NCBI GenBank assembly: GCA_946893605.1
Contig: OX335598.1
Span: 620,001-684,000, forward strand
Source: Candidatus Saccharimonadota bacterium
GTDB lineage: Bacteria > Patescibacteriota > Saccharimonadia > Saccharimonadales > Saccharimonadaceae
Reading direction: 5' to 3'
Length of the DNA stretch: 64,000 nt
The position numbers and the translations under genes were made by a program. The notes below the pieces were generated by a model. That model had not been told where the DNA came from, searched no databases, and saw only the letters and a program-made list of their open reading frames with translations. Positions 36,229 through 54,941 of this stretch are shown piece by piece; the stretch's first letter is position 1; the number at the start of each line of letters is the position of its first letter.

Positions 36229-37320
36229 ATGAAAGTATCAGTCACCCAAGAAAAACTTGCAAAAGCACTTAATCTAATCAAAGATATCGCATCAAGCCGT
36301 AATGAACTGCCGATATTGAATAATATTTTACTTCGTACTGACGGAGGAAGATTATTGATTGCTGGAACGAATTTGGAAATTGCTTCTACTCAATACATTG
36401 GTGCGAAAATTGAAGATCATGGATCTATTACAATCCCTGCCCGATTGGTGTCAGAATTCATTACAAACCTACCAAGCGGCCCGGTGGAACTTGAAACTAA
36501 AAACGAGCATTTGCATATAACTTCAGGAAAATTCTCATCAGTTATCAATGGCGTAGTGGCTGATGAATATCCTGAGTTACCTACAATTGATGAAAAGGCT
36601 GCCGTACAATATGAAATTGACGTTGAGGATCTTAAGAAAGCCATAGTTCAAACAAACTGGCTGCGTCTGCTGTCACGCGAGCAGTTCGCGGGAGTTTATT
36701 GGCACAATTACGAAGGGTCGCTATACTTTCAGCCGCTACTGATGGCTAAGGCTGGCGGAAAAGCGCCTGATAAAGTCAGACAATGAAGTATCAGCTATTA
36801 TTCCCGCCTCTACTCTGGCGGAAGTCAGTAAAAGCGTCGGTGACGAGAAGAAAATTACGGTTCTTTTTGACGATTCTCAAGTTTGTTTTAAGACGGGAGA
36901 TATGGAAATTGTTAGTCGATTGATTGACAGGAAATTCCTGATTATCGCCAATTGATTCCATCAACTGCTGAAACTGAGATTGTTATTAAGAAGTCTGATT
37001 TTAGTCGAGTTACGAAAATTGCGGCTTTATTCGCGCGTGAATCTGGCGGTGGAATTACAATTACCGCATCAGAGGAAAATTCCCTGCTTTCTATTCATTC
37101 GATTGCGTCTGAACTTGGCGAGAACACCTCAGAGGCAACAGCCAAAATATCCGCAGATGGTCAAGTAACGCTTAATTCACGCTACCTAACGGAGGTTTTG
37201 AATATTATTGACGCGGATGAAATCGTATTTTCGTTCAATGGTAAATTGTCGCCGTGTGTAATTCGCGAGCAAGTAAAAAATCCTGATTATACGCACATTA
37301 TTATGCCGCTTAAGAGCTAA
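36229..37320 (+). CDS. dnaN: DNA polymerase III beta clamp (frame broken, probably by sequence errors)
   Basis: The intended protein is about 365 aa, the normal beta-clamp length. MKVSVTQEKLAKALNLIKDI opens domain I; the C terminus is TEVLNIIDADEIVFSF followed by a last segment ending IIMPLKS, close to the usual IMPMR ending. Between 36655 and 36955 the frame is lost repeatedly, yet conserved blocks appear in turn in different frames: AAS, AGVYWHNYEGSLYF, AATDGY, LAEKRLIKSDNEVSAIIPAS, and DYRQLIPSTAETE. Each shift is explained by one missing base (for example TTTCA, TATAGG, TTCCCTGAT). This is an essential, normally single-copy gene, so true inactivation is unlikely. Its stop overlaps the convergent gene by a few bases. 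Confidence 0.93.
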
Positions 37321-38042
37321 ATATCTCTGTAGGTGTAGCACCAGTCAGGATTCGAGCCTCTACATTGAACTACAGCTCCTGTAGATTTCTCTTTCTCTGT
37401 TGGCCAGATGTGATTATTGACTTTGATGTCGTAGTCTTCTTGGTTTATTCTCTTTTCTTTTAGTTTGGCAAACGCCTCGTCAATTTGAGAGCGGTTAAAA
37501 TAGTCCGTTACTGTTATACATATTCCTATAGTCTTATCTCCTCCAGATCGATATCTGTTACATGGAAATATATAGAAATCTCTGCCGTGGATAGGTAAAG
37601 ATTTGATAGCAGGATTTTTATTTTCCAATTGACGAGTAGCTTCTTTACCTTTTTTACCAGCTATACCCTCCTTGATATCAGTGTACTTGTCTTTTGTATA
37701 TTCTTTTTTAGCTTCATCTGTAATAGGTTCTAAGGCGAATATGATGTTTTTCTTCTCGTTTTTGTTAATATTTATTTCTGTAGTATAACTTTCAAATCCA
37801 TTGGCCGAGAAAGTAAATTTATGGTTGCCGTGCTTTATTTTAATGTCTTTCCTGGATGAAATTCGCTGGTTTTTTACGTCGCCATAAGACATCGTCAAAC
37901 TGTCAGGTATGGAATATACATATATCGTGGCATCGAATTGCAGTAGATAAACCGCGTAGATTATAAGTGAGATGGATAACCCTACGAATGAGACGATAGC
38001 TATTTTGACTTTGCGATCTAATTGCATAAAAATATTGAACAT
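37317..38042 (-). CDS. Membrane-anchored protein with PEGA-like domain, in secretion locus
   Basis: A 241-aa protein: a short cytoplasmic N terminus, one helix (IAIVSFVGLSISLIIYAVYL), then an extracytoplasmic PEGA-like beta domain (about 50-110; KHGNHKFTFSANGFESYTTE), a charged linker and a C-terminal domain with four Cys residues (FPCNRYRSGG, ICITV, QCRGSNPDWCYTY). The function is unknown. It is the last gene of the long minus-strand secretion unit, starting three bases after the hydrolase gene's stop. Confidence 0.65.
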   Translation of the reverse strand: MFNIFMQLDRKVKIAIVSFVGLSISLIIYAVYLLQFDATIYVYSIPDSLTMSYGDVKNQRISSRKDIKIKHGNHKFTFSANGFESYTTEININKNEKKNIIFALEPITDEAKKEYTKDKYTDIKEGIAGKKGKEATRQLENKNPAIKSLPIHGRDFYIFPCNRYRSGGDKTIGICITVTDYFNRSQIDEAFAKLKEKRINQEDYDIKVNNHIWPTEKEKSTGAVVQCRGSNPDWCYTYRDI

Positions 38043-38044
38043 AA

Positions 38045-39256
38045 TTATTTATTTAACCTCGCTACTACATTAGTTGAATATCCTAGCTGTGTTTGAACGC
38101 GACCAATATTAGCATACCTAGGCGGATGATCTCCAAGTGATGCTTCTACTGCAACATTTCCATCACCTTGATCTCCGATATATATCATTGTATGCCCGTA
38201 AGATCCCGAACCGCTGTAGACTAATATATCGCCAGGCTGAAGATCGCTAGGAGATTTAGTATTTATGATGGTATATTTTGATGAATTCATTACATAATCT
38301 CTTTGGATGCTGGTGCCTGCTGGTGGGTAGTCTGGGTCGGCTCCACTGGCGCGCATAACGGTAGCGACATATTTTCCACAGTCTGTCATATCGCCACCCG
38401 CTTCTGGGTTATATTTGGCACGAGCGTCTTCATATGCCTGTGAGGGTGTGCCTGGATTGTCTTTATTTATAAGCCCTTTTGCCGTTTCTACTATGCTTCC
38501 GGCATGTACGCCGCCACTATTTGCGCAATTTGACACATTAGCTGAGCTATTTTCGCTACCACCTTCTCCTGAAGGTACCGGATCTTTGTAGTTTGGGTGA
38601 CCTGATTTTGTAAAGTCGCTGTTAAATAGTTCGTAGATATTTTTAAGATAGTTTTGAGTTTCTGTTGGAGCATCAGTTAAAGGACTGGAGTCAGACGTGT
38701 GGTTTTGAATATTACCTCCGCCCCAGTTGTAAGCACCCGCTGCATATAGAATTGTCATAGGTTCCCGCTTCCATGGACTACCAATGTCGCCTAATGGAGT
38801 ATTTTTATCAGTATTCAGAGACTTAACTAGGTGTGCGGCAGAAAAAACAGCATCATAAGGGTTCATAATGTCAGCCTTACCATCCCCGTCTCCGTCTTCG
38901 GCGTGACCACTCCACGTTCCCGGCATAAACTGCATAGGACCACTAGCGCCAACCGGTGAAGATGCTCATTGAGAGTTTAATGCTTCCCAGGTATTTCCCT
39001 GTTCTGTTAAGTATAATGCTGCCAGGAAGTTAGGATTAACGCCGTGCTTTTCTGCTGCTGCGGAAAAAATTTTCCCCCAGTCTGGTGGGATGTTTAGATA
39101 ATTCGGCTGACACAGATCCTGCAGCTTCGGTACAGGCAGAACTTTTTGAACTGTATAATCGTATATTTTGAGCAGGATAATCAGCCTCCGTTAGGGCTGA
39201 GGTGTTTTGCGATAGCAATAATATTGCGATCATAGAAATATAATAGACTTTTTCAT
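38045..39256 (-). CDS. Bifunctional peptidoglycan hydrolase: lytic transglycosylase plus NlpC/P60 or CHAP (disrupted frame)
   Basis: About 403 aa. The signal region (MKKSIIF, then MIAILLLSQNTSA after an indel) is followed by a transglycosylase domain with the catalytic Glu in FLAALYLTEQGNTW, then ASSPVGASGPMQFMPGTW and LYAAGAYNWGGGN. After a Ser-rich linker, a Cys-His peptidase domain has DCGKYVATVMRASG (Cys) and YGHTMIYIGDQ (His). An in-frame TGA at 38966-38968 falls where Trp is expected (TGG to TGA); frame shifts lie near 39240 and 39130. It is VirB1-like and would open the wall for the secretion channel. Confidence 0.85.
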
Positions 39257-39285
39257 TTTATCTAAACCTTCCCCCTTGCATAAAT

Positions 39286-42273
39286 TCAGTGCCACGGCTC
39301 AGGCTTGCTGCCGCCAGGCTTTGCCCAAGGCGGATTAACGTAGCCGTATTTATGCGCGTTTGCCTCGAGCCATTTGTATAGGAGAATCAAAACCTCCAAC
39401 ATTAATGTCCGCAGCAAGACCCCAACCGTGGTTTGATATACATGGGGGGCTGGAGCCGCTCTTGATCCTAGTTCTTTACTATATCTAATCTGTGTTGCGC
39501 AATCTCGATATGCCTCATTAATGGTTAAGTTAGATCCGTTATCAGCCTTATATGCTTTATTCATCTCTTCCATAGCCGACGCGGCCTGTTTATTCATTTT
39601 ACTTTCAGGAGAAAATGATAGGGTTTGTAAATCTGATTCTGAAATTTCGCCATTACTATGACCACCCCATCCCGTTTGCTGTGCCTCTTCTAATTCGGGC
39701 TCTCCGACAGCTTCACCGGTTGAAGATGAAGACTTTGAACTATTACTGCTGCCACTAGGATCTTTAATATAATATTTACTATCAGTATCGCCCGCACGCT
39801 CCGCTAATATACCAGCTACTACCTCCTCTAAAGCGCAAGGATCGGAGGTTTTGTAAACAGGAACGACATACCCCGTACTTCTATCTCTTTCCAGGCTTTT
39901 CTTTCGAGTTTCATCATACGTCTTACAGGTTTCTGCAGTATATTTGTTTGGGTCGGCATTTAGCACTTCAGGATCCGTATATCCATACCAAGGTATTCCC
40001 ATAGATTTCATGACGGCTAATCTATTAGTGGCCGCTGAAGCTCGATTGTTCGGCATCAATGGCGACAATAATAAGGCTGGTGTTTTTGCCAAGAAATTAA
40101 TGGCAGATTTTTTACCGATTGGCATTATAGCAAGCATTTGATTTGCTACTGAATTTCTTAAGTTTGGATCAAATATTTTTGCTAGCATCGACTGCTGCTC
40201 AAACTCTTCTTTATCTTCTTGCTCTGTTTTTGTTGCTATCATCGCCAATTCATTATCGCTCAATAATTTACCACCGATACCAGACCCAGACTCTGTTTTG
40301 CCGTTTTCTAGACTATCCGCCGTTGAGACCATCTGTGCGCCAACCAAACCTTCGTAATTATTATTACCTGGAGCGTCAATGCCGACGTTTGGAATATTAA
40401 ATATGTAGCTAATTGCCCATTGCACTAAGGTGCCCATTATGTCCTGCGAAAAGTCTAATACCTGCTTAATTCCAGGTAATTGAGTTACAAAGTTTACGAT
40501 AGGTTCTGTTATTTGGGATGCTATATCCTGAGCTACGTCAATTACAGCTCCTATAGAATTATTCCAAAAGTTAGCTACTGCGGCTAATACTTGCCATGCT
40601 GGATTTTTGGTAAATGCTGTATAATCCTGGACAACTTTCTTTTCAGGACAAACAAGTTCGCCTGGATCTAATGTAACAACCTTCTCTTTGCCGTCAACAG
40701 TACATTTAGTTCGTATTCCGCCAGATGCAGATACACTGTTGCCAGATAGGATTGGGAGTATAGATGATGTGATTCCACCAGCCTGAATTTCACTGTACAG
40801 TGGTGATGATTCTGCCCCGTCAAATAAACTTGTCGCAAGCTCTAAATATCGAATATCTTGTAAGTCTCCAGTTTTCATCATATCATTTACTACAACTGGA
40901 CTAATGCCTTCATCGTAAGCAAAAGAGGCGTAGGTTTGGGCGACTTGAGCTCGTCCTATAACTTCAAGAGTACCCGAGTCTAGGGCACCTATGAAGCCAG
41001 CAGCCATATCAATCGTGCCTACGATAGCCGAAGCAGTTGTGAATTTTTTCATTAGCTCTTTGTTTATTATTTTTGTAATAAGACCGTCGCCATTAGCTAG
41101 ATTATCGGTAAATTTACTAAAAGTATTTTTGTTGGATTTAGCGGCTTCGTAATCCAATTTTGCTTTAGGATCGTTGGGTTTTTCCTTAAGGGCATTCTCT
41201 TTTTTTCTACATCTCCATCTAGTTTGGTTTTAAGCTTATCGAGTGTTTCTGCACAACCTAAGGCATCTCTACCATTAATACACGATAAGACGGCGGCAAG
41301 TTTTGGTGATATTTTTGCGATGGCACGAGAAGCGAATTCAGACTTAATCTTCGCCTTAAAATCTTTCCATGCTCTAACGTGTTTTTCGGGTATAATATTA
41401 AACGATTTTACGCCATATTTATTATATAGAATACGTTTGGATATAAAGCGCATTAAATAATTACGACCGTGCACTCGTTTTATATCATTCTTAATTATTT
41501 CTCTTATTTCCTTATGACCAACCTCTTTTTCTATGCCTTTCATTACACTGTCAAGGTCTTTGTTAACGCTTTTGATAGTGAAATGAGAAGCCTTTTCCTC
41601 CTAATCCTGAGCGTCCATGGGAATTTATGACTACTTTTACATTGACGCCTTCTTTTTCAAATTTAGCATCAAGCATTTTTTCAAACCAAGCAGAATATTT
41701 TGTTGAAGTGAGCGAGCATATTATACCTCCGCCATTACAGAAAACCAGGTGTTCATCTCCTGGGTAGGCTTCTTTCATAACTCTCATAGCCAACCAGCGC
41801 GTGGTTATGTACTGTAAGCGCTCTTCAACTGAATAATGAGCAACGCTTCCGATTTGCTGATCTATATTGTCCAATAGAGAGTTCAATTTTAGTGGTAGAA
41901 GAGCTGAAAAAGCAGCCGCTACGGAAAGTAAAATACCGACTATAGCTATTATGCCTCTACTTTTTTTCGCAAGCTTTAGAGTAGATTTTAAATTGTTTCG
42001 TTTTTTGTCATTGGACGGCTGATAAAAACCGTTGCTTGGAACAGAAGATTCTTGATCATTAACAGCAGCGCTGGCGGAATCGTTTTGATTAGGATTTAAG
42101 TCCGAATCTTTATTATCAAACTGAGATTCAAGGTCATTTATGGCATCTTTTTCGCGATCACTTAATTCTGACCCGCTGTCAGAACCAGCCGAGATTTGAT
42201 CAAACTTAGCCTGCTCAGCAGGATTTAATCTGCTGTCAGTTTCGGAATCTGTCGTATAATCAACTCGTGCCAT
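39286..42273 (-). CDS. Large membrane protein with C-terminal D-Ala-D-Ala carboxypeptidase (M15/VanY) domain (frameshifts)
   Basis: About 990 aa. The N terminus is long, acidic and low complexity (residues 1-95), followed by one helix (GIIAIVGILLSVAAAFSALL), a large mixed domain with a Cys pair (VFCNGGGIIC) and a hydrophobic middle (AAGFIGALDSG and NSIGAVIDVAQDI). The last 110 residues match peptidase M15B: NEAYRDCATQIRYSKELGSR, then in a shifted frame SNHGWGLAADINVGG, the zinc-binding HxxxxxxD, and the final His in KPEPWH. Frame breaks near 41580, 41160 and 39440 each leave the next block in another frame. It is probably a structural or stalk subunit that also trims peptide stems of murein. 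Confidence 0.78.
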
Positions 42274-42290: not shown

Positions 42291-44150
42291 CTACACCGCT
42301 CCGTAGCCGCCGATCGGTGAATCTGACGGTTTTATTTGTTGTGATACGGGATTTGTATTGATCAAATTATATTCGGTATCGCTAGCCTGAATCTGAATGT
42401 GAACATGATTTTGTCCAGCAAAGAATAAGCCTTGCCCAACTGGGAAATTGGCTAGTCGTTTCTGCTCTTCATCTGTCAATTTGAACACTTGCGCCAAAAC
42501 GTCAACGGCGCTAGCGGACTGTTTCAAAAGTAGCTGCATTGAGGAGTTGGAAACGATTGCTCGCCCCATCTTACTTCCGACGAAGTCTTCCACGTCCTGC
42601 GTGATTGTCGTTAGTCCTAATTGATATTTGCGGGCGCGCTTGGCTAATGAGAATAAGAAATTGGCAGAATCGTCATATTTCATCAATTGCCAAGCCTCGT
42701 CAACAATCAGCATACGTTTCCTCTGATCGGTACGCGTAATATTCCAGATGTGGTTCAGGACAATATACATCGCCGTTGGTCGCAGCTCATCTTCCAAGTC
42801 GCGAATATTAAAGACGACCATATTATTATTAATATCAATATTACTCTGTTGTGAAAATATTCCCGCAAACGTTCCAGAGGTAAATTTACGGAGTCGCTGA
42901 GCCAGACTTGGGCCAGTTCCGCCCATGTGAAGCAAGGTGTCGTATAGATCGGAAATCGTCGGCGGCGTAGAATTGTGTGTTAGTGGATCCGAAGTAATAC
43001 CAACGCGCGCGTAAGTGTCGATTAATGCTTGATCAATATCAGCTTCTTCCGCCGGTGATAGTCCCGCTACGACTTGCCCACCGACTCCTACTCCTGCGCC
43101 GCCCAGCATTTGCCTGAGCAGTCCGTGTAGCGTAACTAAGTTGGCTCGCAGTGCGTCATCTGCTTCATCAGTATCAATAACACGCGGCAAATCAAACGGA
43201 TTGATCCTCGTGTCGCTACTTAAACTCAATCGAATATAACTGCCACCAACCGCGTCGCATAGTTTTTGGTACTCATTTTCTGGGTCAATAATCACAATAT
43301 CAGCCCCGACCATCATACTTCTTAAAGCTTCCAACTTAACGGTAAATGATTTACCAGCACCAGACTTAGCGAACACGACCATATTGGCGTTTTCCAGAGA
43401 GAATCTGTCAAAAATTACCAAGCCATTATTATGCATATTAATTCCGTAAAGTACGCCCTTATTGTCTGTTAAATCGGCTGAAGTGAATGGAAAGCTGGTT
43501 GAAATTGCGCCAGTATTCATGTTGCGGCGAATCTGTAGTTCATCAGTCAATTGTGGAATAGAGCTATTCAATCCCTGTTCCTGCTGGCTGGAGGCCACTT
43601 TTGAGAACACCAATTGCTGACCAAAAATAGTTTCAATTTTATGCTGGATAAAATTCAATTCATCCAAACTGTCGGCGTAAAGCGTAATATATAAGCCATA
43701 GCGGAAGAACTTTTCGGCGCCAATTTGCAGCTGGTCGCGCAATTCTTCGGCGTCTTGCAATGCTGCCTCCAAGCCTGGATCGCGCACCTTTCCTTTTTCC
43801 ATGTTGATATTCATGGTTGCTTCCAGCTGAGTAACTTTTTTGCGCAGGTTATTCAGGACAATTTGCGTATCGACTGGATAAATAAACATACTGATATCCA
43901 GCACTTCGTCGATGTTAATGATTGAGCTAAGCCAACCGGTGTAGATCTGACGAGGATAGCCATAAACATACATCGTGCGACCGTATTTTGAGCCAAGTCT
44001 AAAATGGTCGGAATGAAGCTCAATACTACTTGGCGCAATAAAATCACGCAGAGTTCGAACACCAGTTAAGAAGGCCTGTTCGACTTCGGCTTGTTCTCGT
44101 GCTCGTTGTTGAGCAGCAATATCAACGGCATCTAATTTCTTCTTTGCCAT
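42291..44150 (-). CDS. virB4: VirB4/TraC-type conjugation ATPase
   Basis: A 619-aa protein with an intact frame. An N-terminal VirB4 domain (about 20-245) precedes the ATPase core with Walker A VVFAKSGAGKSFTVKLEALR, DPENEYQKLCDAVGG, RINPFDLP, and Walker B KRMLIVDEAWQLM, then ITQDVEDFV. It powers pilus assembly or substrate transfer at the inner face of the membrane. Its ATG overlaps the stop of the upstream gene (TAATG). It is the only secretion ATPase in the window: no VirB11 and no VirD4 coupling protein are seen. Confidence 0.92.
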   Translation of the reverse strand: MAKKKLDAVDIAAQQRAREQAEVEQAFLTGVRTLRDFIAPSSIELHSDHFRLGSKYGRTMYVYGYPRQIYTGWLSSIINIDEVLDISMFIYPVDTQIVLNNLRKKVTQLEATMNINMEKGKVRDPGLEAALQDAEELRDQLQIGAEKFFRYGLYITLYADSLDELNFIQHKIETIFGQQLVFSKVASSQQEQGLNSSIPQLTDELQIRRNMNTGAISTSFPFTSADLTDNKGVLYGINMHNNGLVIFDRFSLENANMVVFAKSGAGKSFTVKLEALRSMMVGADIVIIDPENEYQKLCDAVGGSYIRLSLSSDTRINPFDLPRVIDTDEADDALRANLVTLHGLLRQMLGGAGVGVGGQVVAGLSPAEEADIDQALIDTYARVGITSDPLTHNSTPPTISDLYDTLLHMGGTGPSLAQRLRKFTSGTFAGIFSQQSNIDINNNMVVFNIRDLEDELRPTAMYIVLNHIWNITRTDQRKRMLIVDEAWQLMKYDDSANFLFSLAKRARKYQLGLTTITQDVEDFVGSKMGRAIVSNSSMQLLLKQSASAVDVLAQVFKLTDEEQKRLANFPVGQGLFFAGQNHVHIQIQASDTEYNLINTNPVSQQIKPSDSPIGGYGAV

Positions 44151-45034
44151 TATGACCTTCCTCCTCTCGGTGACGGACCAGTTCCCTTAGTTACATAAGT
44201 GGTCGTAAGCTCGCTTGGGTCAATTTCTTCTAGCGATTCACGTGACGACGTGTCGGGGTTATATGAGGTGTAGAATAGCTCACCCAGTTGCCTGGTGTTT
44301 AATTGCCAGCTTTTTACGCCCATTTGGAATAGTCCGTTCATAACCGAATCAATGCGGTTTTTAATTTCATCTTTGGCTTTAGTGTAAGTAACTTGGTCGA
44401 TTTTTGTTACGGTTGCCTCTTTTTTTCCGCTAAAGAAGCTATTGAATAGTCCCTTAGTTTGCTGCTTGAAGGCATTTTCCTCGCCAGCTGGATAATATGG
44501 AACAACAACGTAAAAGCTCTTATCCATAATATTTGCCTCTTGCGCCAGAATATCAATGAAATCCATATAATCGTCCATTAAGACGTTGAGGAGCATATTG
44601 TCTTGATTGCGGCGAATTTCCGCCAATCTATCCAGATACGGACCGATGTCCACGCGGCGTGAACGGATAAGAACTTGAATTGGAAAATATAGAGAGTTAA
44701 TGAAGTTTTGATAGCTAAACTCAATTCCCTCTCTTTCGCGTGAACTCATCAGATCAAAGTTGATCGATTCACATTCCACTACCGCTCGAAAACTGCCGTC
44801 GCTCATAATGATCATATTTTCGCGCATTTCAGAGAAAAGCAGTGTATTCTGGGTGCTAATTGGTCCTTTTTGCTTCTTGTCGTCAGGGGTCTTATCTGGA
44901 GATGGTGTGGCTGGATTTGGTCCTGAACCAATTGCCCCTGGTGATTGCTGAGGGACACCAGGAAGAGCCGCATTGGTTTGCGGAACCTGCTGATAAGATT
45001 GTTGATTTTGTAACTCTGGTTGCATAAACCCCAC
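44150..45034 (-). CDS. VirB4/TraC N-terminal-domain-like protein
   Basis: A 294-aa protein with a Gln/Pro-rich start (QNQQSYQQVPQTNAALPGVP) and then a domain resembling the N-terminal part of TraC/VirB4 (QNTLLFSEMRENMIIMSDGS; FYVVVPYYPAGEENAF), but with no Walker motifs. It may pair with the full VirB4 next to it as a scaffold. It starts with GTG directly after the PrgI-gene stop; an ATG three codons later, with GGTGGGG in front, is an alternative start at 45025. Confidence 0.78.
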   Translation of the reverse strand: MGFMQPELQNQQSYQQVPQTNAALPGVPQQSPGAIGSGPNPATPSPDKTPDDKKQKGPISTQNTLLFSEMRENMIIMSDGSFRAVVECESINFDLMSSREREGIEFSYQNFINSLYFPIQVLIRSRRVDIGPYLDRLAEIRRNQDNMLLNVLMDDYMDFIDILAQEANIMDKSFYVVVPYYPAGEENAFKQQTKGLFNSFFSGKKEATVTKIDQVTYTKAKDEIKNRIDSVMNGLFQMGVKSWQLNTRQLGELFYTSYNPDTSSRESLEEIDPSELTTTYVTKGTGPSPRGGRS

Positions 45035-45944
45035 CTAACGTAGTGAAATCACCACTTCCTCATCTGATAATTTATTTTCTTGCTGAATTCGATTTGCCTC
45101 ACGCGCAATCGTTTCAATCGAGAGGTCGCGGTTATTTGCCAGTTCTATTATAGCAGGTGACACCGTTTACGCTAGTTTGCGGCGTAGTTGTCGGTCGAGT
45201 TTGAGCTGGAGCGCTCGCGGCAGGCCGTTCGGACGCTGGATTTAATACAGATTGACGCATTGTTGGGTACGGATTCATTTGTAGCGGTGTGGCTGGAGCA
45301 GGATTATCTGGTTGAGATGATTGAGGTGGTTGTGCGGGAGGCGGCGTAGCAGATTGCCCTGTTTGCATCTTTTGGATGACTTCTTGCCGCCTACGAACAT
45401 CAGACTGATTTATCAAGTGATTGATATTTTGCGCCGTAGCACTATTTTCATCCAATATGTCGTTAGCTGCCTGTCCTTCGTTGAATAAATCGGCACGCAT
45501 CGAGCTATTCGGATTATTGACGCCACGAATTGACCAACCTTGACTATCTACCAAATTCGCCAAATATGACAATCTTCGCTGGACTTCGGCTTGATCGTAA
45601 TTATTACCGTAAGTCTTCTCCTCGACTTTTGGCGCGATAACTTCGACTAATCTTTCAATTCCATCAGGCTGCCATAGTCGCTTTTTTGGTTTTAGCATAA
45701 AAGAAATAACTGCCGCCAAATAAACTTCCATTGGCTGGTCTTTTTTAAGAGGTAAAGCCAGCGCTCCAAAGAATAAAATTATCGGCACAGGAATTATTGC
45801 CAAAGGTAGAAAAATTGTACTCAAACCGTATGCAATAGCGATTCCGATAACAGCTATAATTAAGAACACAAACTGTCGGAAACTAAACGGCCCGAGCAGT
45901 TTGTCCTCCGCCTCGACATCTTGAGGAACTTTATACACCGACAT
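45035..45944 (-). CDS. PrgI-family membrane protein with long C-terminal tail (one frameshift)
   Basis: About 303 aa. The N-terminal 90 residues match PrgI: VPQDVEAEDKLLGPFSFRQF and two helices (FVFLIIAVIGIAIAYGLSTI; LAIIPVPIILFFGALALPL). A Pro/Gln-rich tail follows. One C is missing near 45155; allowing for it, the end reads GVTPAIIELANNRDLSIETI and stops at 45035, right before the next gene. PrgI proteins precede VirB4 in many Gram-positive and CPR type IV systems and probably contact the ATPase. Confidence 0.85.
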
Positions 45945-45973
45945 ACTGCTTATATTATATCAAAATATGGAGA

Positions 45974-48495
45974 TTATAGCATATTGCGGAAAATCTTAAA
46001 TTGTTCTTTAGCTGCGTCAGTTGCATTAGCTGACAACCTCTTATCGGTAAGAATAGTGTCGATGACATCTCTAATATCTTGACGTTTCTTATTAGTAAGA
46101 ACAGATGTAGTATTTACAGCTTCCATCAATAACTTAACAGCGTCAGCATCCGTAGTCGCTAAAGTTTCTGGTTTATATTTACCACCCTCTAGCCAATTGG
46201 CAAAGTAATTCATGAGGTCACTTCTGTTATTAATATCACCTTTCAGCATATCATCGACAAGTTTACCGCCCAAGAATGACGCTTTATTCTTTACACCGGA
46301 TTCCGCTAGCGCTGAGGCTGCGGAAGCGCGGAATTCTGGCGGTAATTCACTAAGAAGTTCGGCAACTTCCGCTGCGGTACCGTATTTAATTTGCTCTTCA
46401 ATTGTAGCTTCACGTACGAATATGCTATCCTTAGTCAATCTTACTCCGCCAGGAAGATTTATAGATCTTCTGCCTAAGGCTAATCCCTGTCTCTCTTCTG
46501 AACTTAGCTTATAGTGTTTTATAATTTGGCGAGCTTCGTCGACCGACTTAGCGTATTCGCTACGGCTGGTTGCTATGGCTGAAGCTAGAGCGGCATTGCT
46601 CCAATTAGGTTGCCATTCTCGTCTGTAAATACATGCCCGCCAGCCTTCTCTCGAAGTTCCTTGCTGTTTATCAATTGCTCTGCAAATTCACTGTGCTGTT
46701 GACGTTGAGCATTATTTTTAATCAGACCTGCAGTTGCAATTTCAGTTTCTAAGTCTTTAATGTCTGACATAAATTGAGCTTGTTGCTGGTAGGATTTAGC
46801 GTCTCGCCAAGTTGAGTATTTAGCTGACACGGCTCGTAGAGCGCGATCGTAATGTGGTCTTTTATCATATATGTCATCTGCCATATAACCTTGAGTCGCT
46901 TCAAGATAACGATTAGAATCTTGCTCAGATAACAGATCTGCACGCCTGGTGGCTTGTCTAGCTGACATATCCAGTCGTTTGTATCTGGCTGTATCTCTAA
47001 ATGAATTCTCGGCATTTTTCTGTGAAGTTTCCAGCTCTTTTTTGAGTGCTCTACCATTATGATCTGTCCAACGACGTAAACGATTTGGGTTGAATCGCGC
47101 CATATTAGGATTAGCCAACTTCTTGTTTCTAATGATCTCACGACGACCTTTAGACCAGTTCTTAGTTCTGTCGTACCAGCCTTTGTTCTTATCGTTAACA
47201 AATCCGGCGAACTTACCTAATACTCCACCGCTGAACTTCATAATTAGAGGAGTTATAGCCAAAGGTATTATTTGAACCAGCATGCCTAATACGTGCATTA
47301 TTGCGCCATTTGGTCCAGAGGCATTTTGTATAATTAATATTCCAGCTAATTGAGCTCCACCTTCAAACACTACAGAAAATGCTGGGAAAATACTAGCATT
47401 GTTAAGAATGAATCTCGCCATTTTTAAACCACTTTTCTGTTCCAGGAAGTAAATAGCAAACGAAGGCTAAAGGTGAAATTATGATTAAGATAATAATGAG
47501 CGCTTGACGAGCGGCCATGATTAGGAGTATGAGGAGTAAAGTTAAGCCAGCTAATGTCGCGGCAGGTACTAACATTGGTAATAATTCCGTAGTAAACGTT
47601 ATTGCTCCTATCGCCAGCGCCCCATTTGACAGTGCTGTACTGATAACTTCCGACCACGTCCATGTACTTGTATTTTCTCCTACGGTGGATATTGTATTTT
47701 TAATTCCCATGAAGGCGTCCTGAAAAGCGTAGCCGGCTATGTTTGATAAATCAAGCAAAATAGCACAAATCGTAAATGATAAGTTGACTAGCACTGCTGC
47801 AATTACTAACCTAGGAATCATCTTTTTAACGCCGTAATTGCTAATTCCTACGGATGTCAATTGCGAGTAGATAATCACCAAAAACGCCACGATAAACGCC
47901 ACGTTGCTAATGTTTCGCATAATGACCCACGCCAGATAAATTCCGCTATTTTGGTTGGTTGTTTCTAATGGCTTAGTTTTTAAGAATTGCTGAAGCGCGC
48001 TGTACATAAAATCTATGCCGTCAGCCAGCCAGTTGGAAACTGGACAAATAAACCATCCTATTCCCTGTACGTCACAGGAAGTGCTGGTTGAATTTTCAGA
48101 GGAGGATCAATTGAAATAGTTGAGTTGCTGGTTTGTTCGTAGGTGTTCGGTGGCGTAAATGAATAAACCGCGTAGGTTGCCGAGCTTAGCGAAGATATTT
48201 CGCTTGATGGGAAATAAATAACCTTGGTTTCTTTTTTATTCTTATCTTCATTAACATAAACAAGCGAATTATCAGGTAGGTTAAATTGTTTGATCTTTTT
48301 ATCATCACTTACCTTTGTATATTTTTCTTTATTATAGGTTAAATTATGGCCGCTCCATTCTGCGTCTACAGCGTAAACAGAGGTTGAGTGTGTTAAGGCA
48401 TTAAGAAAAATGCCCACCAGCATTCCCGCTATCAGCAATACAAACCATCGCAACGTCACAATAAGAGGTTGCTTACGTGAAATTAACCACTCCAT
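45974..48495 (-). CDS. VirB6/TrbL-like polytopic secretion protein, copy 1 (frameshifts)
   Basis: About 840 aa. Order: signal/TM (LIVTLRWFVLLIAGMLVGIF), an extracellular domain, the motif DVQGIGWFICPVSNWLADGI, five or more helices (NISNVAFIVAFLVIIYSQLT; VKKMIPRLVIAAVLVNLSF; AARQALIIILIIISPLAFVC) and a long charged, helical cytoplasmic tail. Breaks near 48065, 47415 and 46600 each correspond to one missing base (for example an A in TTTAAAAA, with the copy 2 reading FKKW as guide). VirB6/TrbL proteins form the inner-membrane channel. It lies behind copy 2 and in front of the PrgI gene. Confidence 0.82.
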
Positions 48496-53084: not shown

Positions 53085-53456
53085 ATGACAAAAAGAAATA
53101 TTGTAATTAGTATATTTATCGCAACAGTAATCGCAGGAAGTGTTTTTATACCCAGAATAGCTTTGGCTGCCAGCTGCGGCGGCGCGGAAACTTCTGTTAT
53201 TTCTTGTGAAGGCGAAGGTAGCACGGCAATTATCAACATAATCAAACAAGTTATTAAAATCTTAACCGCTGGAGTTTTGGTTGCGGCAGTTGGCGCTGTT
53301 ATATACGGGGCATTCTTATATACCACTTCTGAGGGTAGCCCAGATAAGATAAAAAAAGCGCGTGAAGTTTGGACTAATACTGTAATTGGGATAATAATGT
53401 TTGCGTTTATGGTGGCAATTACTAACTTTATTATTCCAGGAGGAGTTTTCGATTGA
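53085..53456 (+). CDS. VirB2/TrbC pilin-like protein 1
   Basis: A 123-aa protein with a signal peptide (IVISIFIATVIAGSVFIPRI, ending IALAA), a short Cys-containing loop (SCGGAETSVISCEG), then two helices separated by a small polar loop: IIKQVIKILTAGVLVAAVGA with SEGSPDKIKKAREVW, and NTVIGIIMFAFMVAITNFI. This is the VirB2/TrbC layout: the processed pilin packs as a two-helix hairpin. It is first of six tandem paralogues; its stop overlaps the next start (ATGA). Confidence 0.85.
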   Translation: MTKRNIVISIFIATVIAGSVFIPRIALAASCGGAETSVISCEGEGSTAIINIIKQVIKILTAGVLVAAVGAVIYGAFLYTTSEGSPDKIKKAREVWTNTVIGIIMFAFMVAITNFIIPGGVFD

Positions 53457-53887
53457 TGAAGAAAATTATAATAGCAATGTCTTTAATGATTATAGGGTCG
53501 CTTGGGGTGAGTATGACTTTCCCGAATACTTCTTTTGCAGAAAGTAATAAATGTGATAAAAAAGGCAGAATTTTAACATTGAAGCCGTGGTATGACGGAT
53601 TGACGAAAGACGACTGTTCTATTAAAGATCCTGGTTCAGACGCTGATTCACAGGCAAATTTTATCTGGAAAATCGTGCTTAATATCGTTGATGATTTACT
53701 GCAGCTTATTGGTTACACGACCGTTGGATATATTATGTACGGTGGATTCTTGATGATGACCAGTAACGGTGCTCCAGATAAGGCCGCTCATGGGCGAAAG
53801 ACTATTATGAGTGCCGCGATTGGTTTGGTTATCGCCCTAGCTTCTGTTGCGTTGGTTAACTTTATATCATCAAAGATAGGGGTATAA
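53453..53887 (+). CDS. VirB2/TrbC pilin-like protein 2
   Basis: A 144-aa protein. The signal peptide is IIIAMSLMIIGSLGVSMTF. The exposed part is longer than in its neighbours, with Cys residues (KCDKKG, DDCSIKD), followed by the two-helix core IVLNIVDDLLQLIGYTTVGY, GGFLMMTSNGAPDKAAHGRK and SAAIGLVIALASVALVNFI. It overlaps gene 1 by four bases and is one base from gene 3, so it is translationally coupled. It is probably a minor or variant pilin. Confidence 0.82.
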   Translation: MMKKIIIAMSLMIIGSLGVSMTFPNTSFAESNKCDKKGRILTLKPWYDGLTKDDCSIKDPGSDADSQANFIWKIVLNIVDDLLQLIGYTTVGYIMYGGFLMMTSNGAPDKAAHGRKTIMSAAIGLVIALASVALVNFISSKIGV

Positions 53888-53888
53888 A

Positions 53889-54173
53889 ATGAGATATATG
53901 GAATTTTTTGCTGGATTATTAGGAAAGGCAGATGATCTTGGCGTGCCACAGAATAACGATGTAGATATTATGAAGTTTGTTAATTTGGCGCTCTGGGTGG
54001 CTGGTGTCGTGGCTGTTATTGTGGTGATTATTGCTGGAATAAACTATTCCCTGTCTTCCGGCGATCCCGCTAAGACGGCCAGCGCAAAGAATGCTATTTT
54101 ATATTCAGTTATTGGTTTGGTTATTATTGCTAGTGCGATTGCTATAACAGGTTATATTATAGGAAAGGTTTAA
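53889..54173 (+). CDS. VirB2/TrbC pilin-like protein 3
   Basis: A 94-aa protein, the shortest of the set and without a clear signal peptide. It keeps the core: FVNLALWVAGVVAVIVVIIA, a polar loop SSGDPAKTASAKN, and AILYSVIGLVIIASAIAITG. It may need no processing or use an internal start. It lies between genes 2 and 4 with gaps of one base. Confidence 0.82.
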   Translation: MRYMEFFAGLLGKADDLGVPQNNDVDIMKFVNLALWVAGVVAVIVVIIAGINYSLSSGDPAKTASAKNAILYSVIGLVIIASAIAITGYIIGKV

Positions 54174-54174
54174 A

Positions 54175-54555
54175 ATGAAGATTTTTACAAAAATCCTGAC
54201 GGCTGGAATACTAATGATTGGGCTCCTTGGCGTGTTTACTCCGGCGGTGTCTGCAGCTAACGGTATTGATATTTGCTCAAATGGAAATGAAAACTCTGTC
54301 TATTGTAAAAATAAGGGCAGTGGCGAAACTCAGGTGAACGGTATTATAAAAACCATCGTTGAAGTTCTACTTACGGCTGTTGGTGCTATTTCGATTATTA
54401 TGATAGTTATTGGTGGTATTATGTTTGCACTTTCCAGCGGTGATGCTCAGAAAGCTGCAAAAGCCAGGAATACTGTTTTATATGCTGTCGTTGGCTTAAT
54501 AGTCTCTATATTCGCTTCAGCAATTGTTAATTTTGTATTTAATAGGTTTAATTAG
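54175..54555 (+). CDS. VirB2/TrbC pilin-like protein 4
   Basis: A 126-aa protein with a signal peptide (TAGILMIGLLGVFTPAVSAA), two Cys (DICSNGNENSVYC), then IIKTIVEVLLTAVGAISIIM, the loop SSGDAQKAAKARNTV and YAVVGLIVSIFASAIVNFVF. It is a typical family member and the best reference for the group. TAAAATG links it to gene 3. Confidence 0.87.
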   Translation: MKIFTKILTAGILMIGLLGVFTPAVSAANGIDICSNGNENSVYCKNKGSGETQVNGIIKTIVEVLLTAVGAISIIMIVIGGIMFALSSGDAQKAAKARNTVLYAVVGLIVSIFASAIVNFVFNRFN

Positions 54556-54563
54556 GAGAAAAT

Positions 54564-54941
54564 ATGAAAAAATCAATAATATCAATAGCAATTATGACAT
54601 GTGCGGTGTTTGGAGCATCGGTTTTGTCTACCGCTTCCCTGTCGGGCAGTGTTTCTGCTCAGGTATCTAAAGGAATTGATACGGCTACAACATCGGAAAT
54701 GAAAGGTAAAAGTATTGACGGTGATGGCGGTCTAATAAAAACAGTAGTTAATGTTTTGCTTTGGGCTGTGGGTATTTTGTCTGTTATTATGATTATTTTT
54801 AGCGGATTTCGCTATATTACCTCGGCTGACGACGCTTCAAAGACAAAATCTGCTCAGAGTACGCTCACCTATTCAGTGGTTGGACTAATTGTGGCTATTA
54901 TGGCATACGCGATCGTCAATATGGTTATAAATCGACTATAA
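54564..54941 (+). CDS. VirB2/TrbC pilin-like protein 5
   Basis: A 125-aa protein with a signal peptide (ISIAIMTCAVFGASVLSTAS, ending SGSVSAQ), an acidic loop (TSEMKGKSIDGDGG), and the core LIKTVVNVLLWAVGILSVIM, TSADDASKTKSAQSTL, YSVVGLIVAIMAYAIVNMVI. The TTAGGAGAAAATATG start gives it a ribosome-binding site. The next gene lies 76 bases on. Confidence 0.87.
   Translation: MKKSIISIAIMTCAVFGASVLSTASLSGSVSAQVSKGIDTATTSEMKGKSIDGDGGLIKTVVNVLLWAVGILSVIMIIFSGFRYITSADDASKTKSAQSTLTYSVVGLIVAIMAYAIVNMVINRL

What the first reader, a model, noticed from the sequence alone, without database searches (positions are those of the whole stretch)
38045..42273. Two peptidoglycan hydrolases with three complementary cutting activities in the secretion locus
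The gene at 38045-39256 has a transglycosylase (Glu in YLTEQGN) and a Cys-His amidase/endopeptidase (DCGKYV, GHTMIYIG). The gene at 39286-42273 ends in a VanY-type M15 carboxypeptidase (SNHGWGLAADI, PEPWH). Glycan strands, cross-links and stem peptides could all be processed. A VirB1-like enzyme alone is usual; adding an M15 peptidase fused to a giant membrane subunit is unusual and could serve to pierce the host's wall as well as its own.
Basis: partly seen in the sequence, partly recalled or inferred. Interest (0 to 1): 0.65.

Follow-up and report, generated by a model that had tools for sequence, protein, structure and literature searches.

The report
Swappable wall-cutting tips on secretion system
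A tiny mouth bacterium that lives on other bacteria builds a secretion machine whose wall-cutting enzyme domains are exchanged like drill bits between almost identical relatives, which makes them good candidates for the parts that decide which host it can grow on.

Summary
The window is the dnaA-linked type IV secretion (T4SS) locus of an oral Saccharibacterium (TM7), a close relative of HMT-352. The reported domains are real: an SLT+CHAP hydrolase, and a giant membrane protein with a C-terminal M15 (VanY-like) zinc peptidase. Both genes are frame-broken in this assembly, but intact relatives confirm the fusion. The fusion is not a curiosity of this genome. In 97 distinct Saccharimonadia giants, all encoded just after virB4, 80 end in a recognised enzyme: M23 36, VanY/M15 21, an M15-like HxH domain 15, CHAP/NlpC 5, endonuclease/phosphatase-type 2, GDSL 1. 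The rest have none. The new point is exchange. The window and HMT-352-SAG3 have identical VirB4 proteins. Their giants share the first ~110 residues (87%) and the VanY tip (76%), but the ~2.3 kb body between is at background (20%). The window body instead resembles giants that carry M23 tips. The hydrolase gene next door is also replaced, and the same holds class-wide. Best reading: a modular, fast-exchanging wall-cutting tip on a conserved T4SS, probably matched to host wall chemistry. The exchange is shown; catalysis and the host-wall target are inferred. Hydrolases downstream of virB4 were already known to be essential in one Saccharibacterium.

The parts
38045..39256 (-). VirB1-like secreted hydrolase gene: signal peptide, docking-like segment (LTEADYPAQNIRLYSSKSSAC), SLT transglycosylase-type domain, C-terminal CHAP (NlpC/P60-like); frame-broken in this assembly
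   Evidence: relatives
38147..38389 (-). CHAP domain (DCGKYV ... GHTMIYIG)
   Evidence: PF05257 residues 193-273 of piece 38048-38965; 49% to L039 CHAP
38693..39190 (-). SLT-type domain (Glu of YLTEQGN on the piece upstream of the in-frame TGA at 38966-38968)
   Evidence: PF13406/PF01464 on the downstream piece; 48-51% to L075
39286..39717 (-). C-terminal M15/VanY tip of the giant subunit; frame-broken here; 76% aa / 80.5% nt to HMT-352 tip
39718..42013 (-). Body of the giant subunit: not alignable to HMT-352 giant, 34-38% to M23-tipped giants of G007/G001; frame-broken
42014..42273 (-). N-terminal part of the giant (acidic, presumably cytoplasmic, before the first TM); 87% aa to HMT-352
42291..44150 (-). 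virB4 ATPase (TraG P-loop, AAA_10)
   Evidence: 273/295 class genomes
44150..45034 (-). conserved protein encoded upstream of virB4 (no Pfam match)
45132..45944 (-). PrgI/VirB3-like gene (3' end frame-broken)
   Evidence: PF12666 in the L087 counterpart
45974..48495 (-). VirB6-like polytopic protein, in broken pieces here
   Evidence: intact 843 aa in L087/L014
37317..38042 (-). membrane-anchored PEGA-domain protein downstream of the hydrolase; also part of the replaced block
53085..54941 (+). T4SS pilin (VirB2-like) array
   Evidence: PF18895 in two of the genes tested; open reading frames

Best explanation
The two genes are one allele of a modular, rapidly exchanged peptidoglycan-cutting module of the Saccharibacterial T4SS. 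A Saccharimonadia-specific giant membrane subunit, encoded right after virB4, carries an exchangeable C-terminal hydrolase (here an M15 zinc peptidase) on the outside of the cell. The next gene supplies a secreted VirB1-like enzyme (here SLT+CHAP) whose start carries a segment shared by otherwise unrelated hydrolases, probably a dock to the machine. Together they open peptidoglycan at the contact site so that the T4SS can reach the host. Homologous recombination in the conserved outer parts (virB4 plus the giant's first ~110 residues, the tip, dnaN) swaps bodies, tips and hydrolases, so the cutting set can be changed without rebuilding the machine. Shown: domains, catalytic residues, fold of the VanY tip, class-wide architecture, exchange. 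Inferred: surface location, activity, recombination route, host wall as main target, specificity as the selective force.
For: Domains. Catalytic residues conserved. M15 fold. Fusion in other genomes: 21 of 97 giants end in VanY, 72 of 97 in a VanY, M23 or M15-like HxH (presumed zinc) tip. Exchange: window vs HMT-352 VirB4 100%, N-term 87%, body 20%, tip 76%; nucleotide breaks at 37319, 39274, 39717 and 42014 fall on gene or domain borders. G007 and G221, of different genera, share a 64% tip on 30% bodies. The window hydrolase is itself mosaic: SLT half closest to L075, CHAP half to L039. Control: in pairs with VirB4 >=92% identical, giants have median 28% and hydrolases 16% identity, against DnaA 84, DnaN 83, PrgI 70. 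Tip class changes at least 40 times on the VirB4 tree of 97 loci, shuffled mean 53. Shared segment after the signal peptide in 55 of 92 hydrolases by a strict pattern. Biology: T4SS genes, including a peptidase and a lysozyme homologue right after virB4, are essential for epibiotic growth in S. epibionticum (PMC10633639, PMC12102498); HMT-352 strains differ in host range without following their phylogeny (PMC9040727); some TM7x T4SS genes are higher at first host contact (PMC10768705).
Against: No enzymatic activity or surface location was tested. PrgK shows that LytM and CHAP domains of a T4SS hydrolase can be inactive and regulatory (PMC11323569). 17 of 97 giants have no recognised tip, so a tip is not always needed there. 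Tip class is not random on the VirB4 tree (40 changes vs 46-60 in shuffles), so there is some inheritance. No host or host-range data exist for the window's strain. The VirB6-like proteins of the locus are also very divergent in some pairs, so fast change is not limited to hydrolases.
Confidence: 0.6

Rival explanations
1. Ordinary VirB1 role: the enzymes only open the bacterium's own wall to let the T4SS assemble. Their diversity reflects functional equivalence of wall hydrolases and frequent gene transfer, not host matching.
For: VirB1 proteins normally do this; SLT+CHAP and LytM+SLT+CHAP forms are known in Gram-positive T4SSs (PMC12857230, PMC11323569). Many classes at one locus could be interchangeable.
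Against: Own wall chemistry should hardly differ between cells with 98-100% identical VirB4 and DnaA, yet the cutting class and body turn over there; L140/L144: DnaA 100%, VirB4 98%, giant 30%, hydrolase 23%. GDSL and endonuclease/phosphatase-type tips are not obvious own-wall assembly tools.
Confidence: 0.27
2. Surface variation driven by defence or recognition: giant, hydrolase and VirB6-like proteins are exposed and change to escape host defences, phages of the epibiont or mammalian immunity. The enzyme class is a by-product.
For: Bodies, not only tips, are exchanged, and VirB6-like proteins also diverge fast. Tandem variable pilins are known in this locus (PMC12102498).
Against: Catalytic motifs are kept in 19 of 21 VanY tips, so enzyme function is under selection; replacement is by enzymes of related function rather than by drift.
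Confidence: 0.13
3. Polymorphic-toxin-like system: conserved N-terminal part plus interchangeable C-terminal toxic enzyme aimed at rivals, with immunity encoded by the small variable genes downstream.
For: Conserved start, variable enzymatic end, and small variable membrane-anchored genes downstream.
Against: The giant has typically 3 hydrophobic segments and sits in the machine's operon at one fixed place. The downstream PEGA-like family is present with different tip classes, including with no recognised tip. No tip-specific partner was found.
Confidence: 0.06
4. Artefact: the chimeric look is produced by misassembly of the window's genome or of the HMT-352 single-cell genome.
For: The window assembly is full of frame errors; L087 is a single-amplified genome.
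Against: Both loci hold a family member at the right place, the conserved parts differ by 5-20% rather than being identical, L087's giant is one open frame, and the same pattern recurs in independent pairs of genomes.
Confidence: 0.03

Closest known systems
Gram-positive VirB1 proteins: TraG (pIP501), Orf14 (Tn916), CwlT (ICEBs1)
   Same: Two-domain secreted hydrolase (SLT or muramidase-like plus CHAP/NlpC) encoded near virB4 of a monoderm T4SS
   Different: Exchanged as whole domains between near-identical genomes; mostly Phage_lysozyme2-type in Saccharimonadia (45 of 62); shared segment after the signal peptide
PrgK (pCF10)
   Same: Metallopeptidase, glycan-cutting and CHAP-type domains serving one T4SS
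   Different: In PrgK all three are in one protein and LytM/CHAP are inactive; here the metallopeptidase sits on a separate giant subunit and keeps its catalytic residues
Southlakia epibionticum T4SS (SEML1_0006-0019) and TM7x T4SS
   Same: Same class, pilin array, peptidase and lysozyme homologues right after virB4; essential for epibiotic growth (PMC10633639, PMC12102498)
   Different: Exchangeability of tips, chimeric giants and class-wide turnover are not described in the papers read
M15 peptidases VanYB, LdcB/DacB, Ply500 endolysin
   Same: Zinc ligands, catalytic Glu and fold
   Different: Fused to the end of a ~1000 aa membrane protein of a secretion system
Exchangeable phage tail-tip and endolysin lysins
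   Same: Works like: modular cutting domains on a conserved injection device
   Different: No phage origin shown; no related virB4 locus found in IMG/VR contigs

Membership tests
Patescibacterial T4SS (MPF_FATA-related) | virB4 with PrgI/VirB3, VirB6-like and VirB2-like pilins, often near dnaA | tested here: met
   dnaA and dnaN adjacent
Patescibacterial T4SS (MPF_FATA-related) | absence of relaxase in the cluster | not tested
   no relaxase search was made
Peptidase family M15 (VanY type) | zinc ligands H, D, H (SxHxxGxAxD ... ExWH), catalytic Glu, substrate Arg | tested here: met
   in the window the residues are spread over two frames
Peptidase family M15 (VanY type) | M15 fold | tested here: met
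   AF2 of the HMT-352 tip; best PDB matches 5hnm, 4ox3, 4mph, 2vo9, prob 1.00
Peptidase family M15 (VanY type) | D,D-carboxypeptidase, L,D-carboxypeptidase or endopeptidase activity | not testable with these tools
   matches span all three activities
VirB1-like hydrolase, Gram-positive two-domain type | exported protein with N-terminal SLT-type and C-terminal CHAP domain near virB4 | tested here: met
   frame-broken in the window
VirB1-like hydrolase, Gram-positive two-domain type | catalytic activity | not testable with these tools
   Glu, Cys and His present by position only
Extended VirB6 (ConG/Orf15 type), considered for the giant | VirB6 homology or five or more hydrophobic helices | tested here: not met
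   hhalign with the locus's VirB6-like family probability 0.4%; typically 2-4 hydrophobic segments; no PDB fold match. VirB6-like proteins are separate genes in the locus
PrgK-type DELTA-class VirB1 | LytM, SLT and CHAP in one protein | tested here: not met
   the metallopeptidase is on a separate gene

The most novel reading that the evidence does not exclude
The giant-tip/hydrolase cassette is the main fast-evolving host-range determinant of Saccharibacteria: epibionts change bacterial host by swapping wall-cutting tips on an otherwise constant T4SS, much as phages swap tail-tip lysins.
Probability: 0.3. Interest if true: 0.88.

Novelty: new variant of a known kind. Interest (0 to 1): 0.66.

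Why it matters
What decides which Actinobacteria a Saccharibacterium can grow on is an open question; strains of one species differ in host range without following their phylogeny (PMC9040727). A hypervariable block inside an essential machine, with nameable enzymes matched against wall chemistries, gives a concrete candidate that can be checked first by comparing existing strain genomes with existing host-range data. It also shows a secretion-system subunit built as a carrier for interchangeable hydrolases, including double and triple tips (endonuclease/phosphatase-type plus M23), which the VirB1 models from conjugation do not cover.

Tried and rejected
Giant as an extended VirB6: no profile similarity and too few hydrophobic helices. 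Giant body by fold: no PDB match at E <= 0.001 (model pTM 0.69, pLDDT 70). Phage origin: virB4 search of IMG/VR found no relative. Silent second copy of the window's body elsewhere in the genus: none found in the genomes searched. A second lysozyme or M23 elsewhere in the window's genome: none. Body profile across the phylum: it matched only 10 of 241 genomes, all in the window's family, and missed even the window's own body, so it is too narrow to settle distribution. Alternative genetic code for the in-frame TGA: rejected, because normal genes here end in TGA and other genes carry frame errors. Free-standing VanY genes in G005-G008 are separate from the T4SS. No published account of tip exchange was found in the searches made; papers outside the open library are not covered.

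Full report
WHAT THE WINDOW IS. The window lies in a 702 kb single-contig genome. Its dnaA/dnaN/virB4 block is 91-95% identical in DNA to an oral TM7 single-cell genome, HMT-352-SAG3 (L087 = G002). The locus is a T4SS: virB4, PrgI/VirB3, VirB6-like proteins and a VirB2-like pilin array, next to dnaA as described for Patescibacteria (PMC12102498). virB4 was found in 273 of 295 class genomes.

OBSERVATION. The domains reported are there, but neither gene is one open frame in this assembly. dnaN is broken too, and L087 has intact versions of dnaN, giant and hydrolase, so this is most simply assembly error. The VanY tip keeps every residue that is invariant among 14 relatives. An AF2 model of the HMT-352 tip matches VanYB, LdcB, Ply500 and VanXY at probability 1.00, although TM-scores are only 0.4-0.5, in part because about 40 residues of linker are unmodelled.

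THE FUSION IS THE RULE. I fetched the region downstream of virB4 from 60 genomes by the genome search handles plus same-genus loci and 80 named loci. The order virB4, giant (about 670-1600 aa), optional small gene, hydrolase, ~210 aa membrane-anchored gene is nearly constant. In 62 intact giants Pfam finds in the last 330 residues M23 in 22, VanY in 13, Exo_endo_phos in 5, NlpC in 2, GDSL in 1. With iterated profiles over 97 distinct giants the classes are M23 36, VanY 21, a domain with H..GxAxD and CxHxH motifs but no significant Pfam family 15, CHAP/NlpC 5, endonuclease/phosphatase-type 2, GDSL 1, none 17. Some large giants stack one or two endonuclease/phosphatase-type domains before M23. 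The downstream enzymes are mostly Phage_lysozyme2 (45 of 62) with varied second domains: CHAP, C39, GDSL, Amidase_3, M23 and others. An M23 protein in the T4SS operon of oral TM7, and VirB6 varying by clade while VirB4 stays constant, were noted before (PMC7739484). Hydrolases after virB4 are essential in S. epibionticum (PMC12102498 citing PMC10633639).

THE PARTS ARE EXCHANGED. Between window and HMT-352-SAG3, alignment at DNA level holds to 37319 (end of dnaN), stops, returns for 39274-39717 (the VanY tip, 80.5%), stops, and resumes at 42014 (first ~260 bases of the giant, then virB4 and on). In protein terms VirB4 is 100% identical, the giant's first 100 residues 87%, tip 76%, body 20%, which is background. 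The window's body is instead 34-38% identical to giants of G007 and G001, which carry M23 tips. Conversely G007 and G221, of different genera, share a 64% tip on 30% bodies. The window's hydrolase is itself mosaic: SLT half nearest to L075 (48%), CHAP half nearest to L039 (49%). As a control, in pairs of loci with VirB4 at least 92% identical, median identity is 84% for DnaA, 83% for DnaN and 70% for PrgI, but 28% for the giant and 16% for the hydrolase. VirB6-like proteins are also low there (24-30%), though paralogue assignment is less certain. L140/L144 have DnaA 100% and VirB4 98%, but giant 30% and hydrolase 23%. Tip class needs at least 40 changes on the VirB4 tree of 97 loci, against 46-60 in shuffles, and 22 among the three main classes: weakly inherited, often switched.

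A COMMON HANDLE. Right after the signal peptide most hydrolases carry a segment like FYSxNDILFYxPxxxxC (55 of 92 by a strict pattern), also recognisable in the window, although the catalytic parts behind it differ. The simplest reading is a dock to the machine that is kept while the enzyme is changed; this is inference.

THE GIANT. It has typically three hydrophobic segments, the first near residue 101, conserved cysteines, and no match to VirB6 or to any solved fold. I treat it as a Saccharimonadia-specific membrane subunit with an external C-terminus; the external location is inferred from the kind of enzymes it carries and from the cysteines.

MECHANISM AND LIMITS. A host-matched wall-cutting tip explains best why enzyme class changes between cells whose core machinery and, presumably, own wall are the same. 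[quoted passage not shown] But domain presence is not activity: in PrgK only one of three domains is active (PMC11323569), and inactive VirB1-like proteins have been proposed as adhesins (PMC11067333, PMC12857230), so tips may partly bind rather than cut. Own-wall function and recognition-driven variation remain live rivals.

VERDICT. New variant of a known kind; interest 0.66.

Noticed in passing
window 36229-37320, 45132-48495: dnaN, the PrgI gene and the VirB6-like gene are also frame-broken while L087/L014 have them intact: the assembly carries many indel-type errors, in line with 83% estimated completeness for a single contig.
   Followed up: partly
L043, L046, L048, L049, L056, L058, L064, L066, L069, L072, L081, L104, L128, L139, L155 (C-termini of giants): A tip class with H..GxAxD and CxHxH motifs and no significant Pfam family; looks like an undescribed M15-like peptidase family.
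   Followed up: partly
L031, L032, L034, L068, L077, L095 (giants): Endonuclease/exonuclease/phosphatase-type domains, one or two, in front of an M23 tip on 1200-1600 aa giants; possible phosphodiesterases against teichoic acids or lipids.
   Followed up: partly
L057 vs L161: Giants of two loci with 98% identical VirB4 are 919 and 1094 aa; the longer has extra sequence near the C-terminal end that looks CHAP/NlpC-like, as if a domain was inserted.
   Followed up: no
G049 contig 1: 7287-9041, 16314-17984, 859312-860997: Three separate places with giant-body homology in one genome; extra copies could serve as donors for exchange.
   Followed up: no
L002-L005, L008-L010 (G005-G008): Free-standing VanY genes of about 280-330 aa, some in neighbouring pairs, away from the T4SS in same-genus genomes.
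   Followed up: no
L140 vs L144: VirB6-like proteins only ~26% identical although DnaA is 100% identical: fast change reaches other exposed T4SS parts; paralogue mix-up not excluded.
   Followed up: partly
window 37317-38042: Membrane-anchored PEGA-domain protein family follows the hydrolase in most loci whatever the tip class; possible VirB8-position protein or wall-side scaffold.
   Followed up: partly
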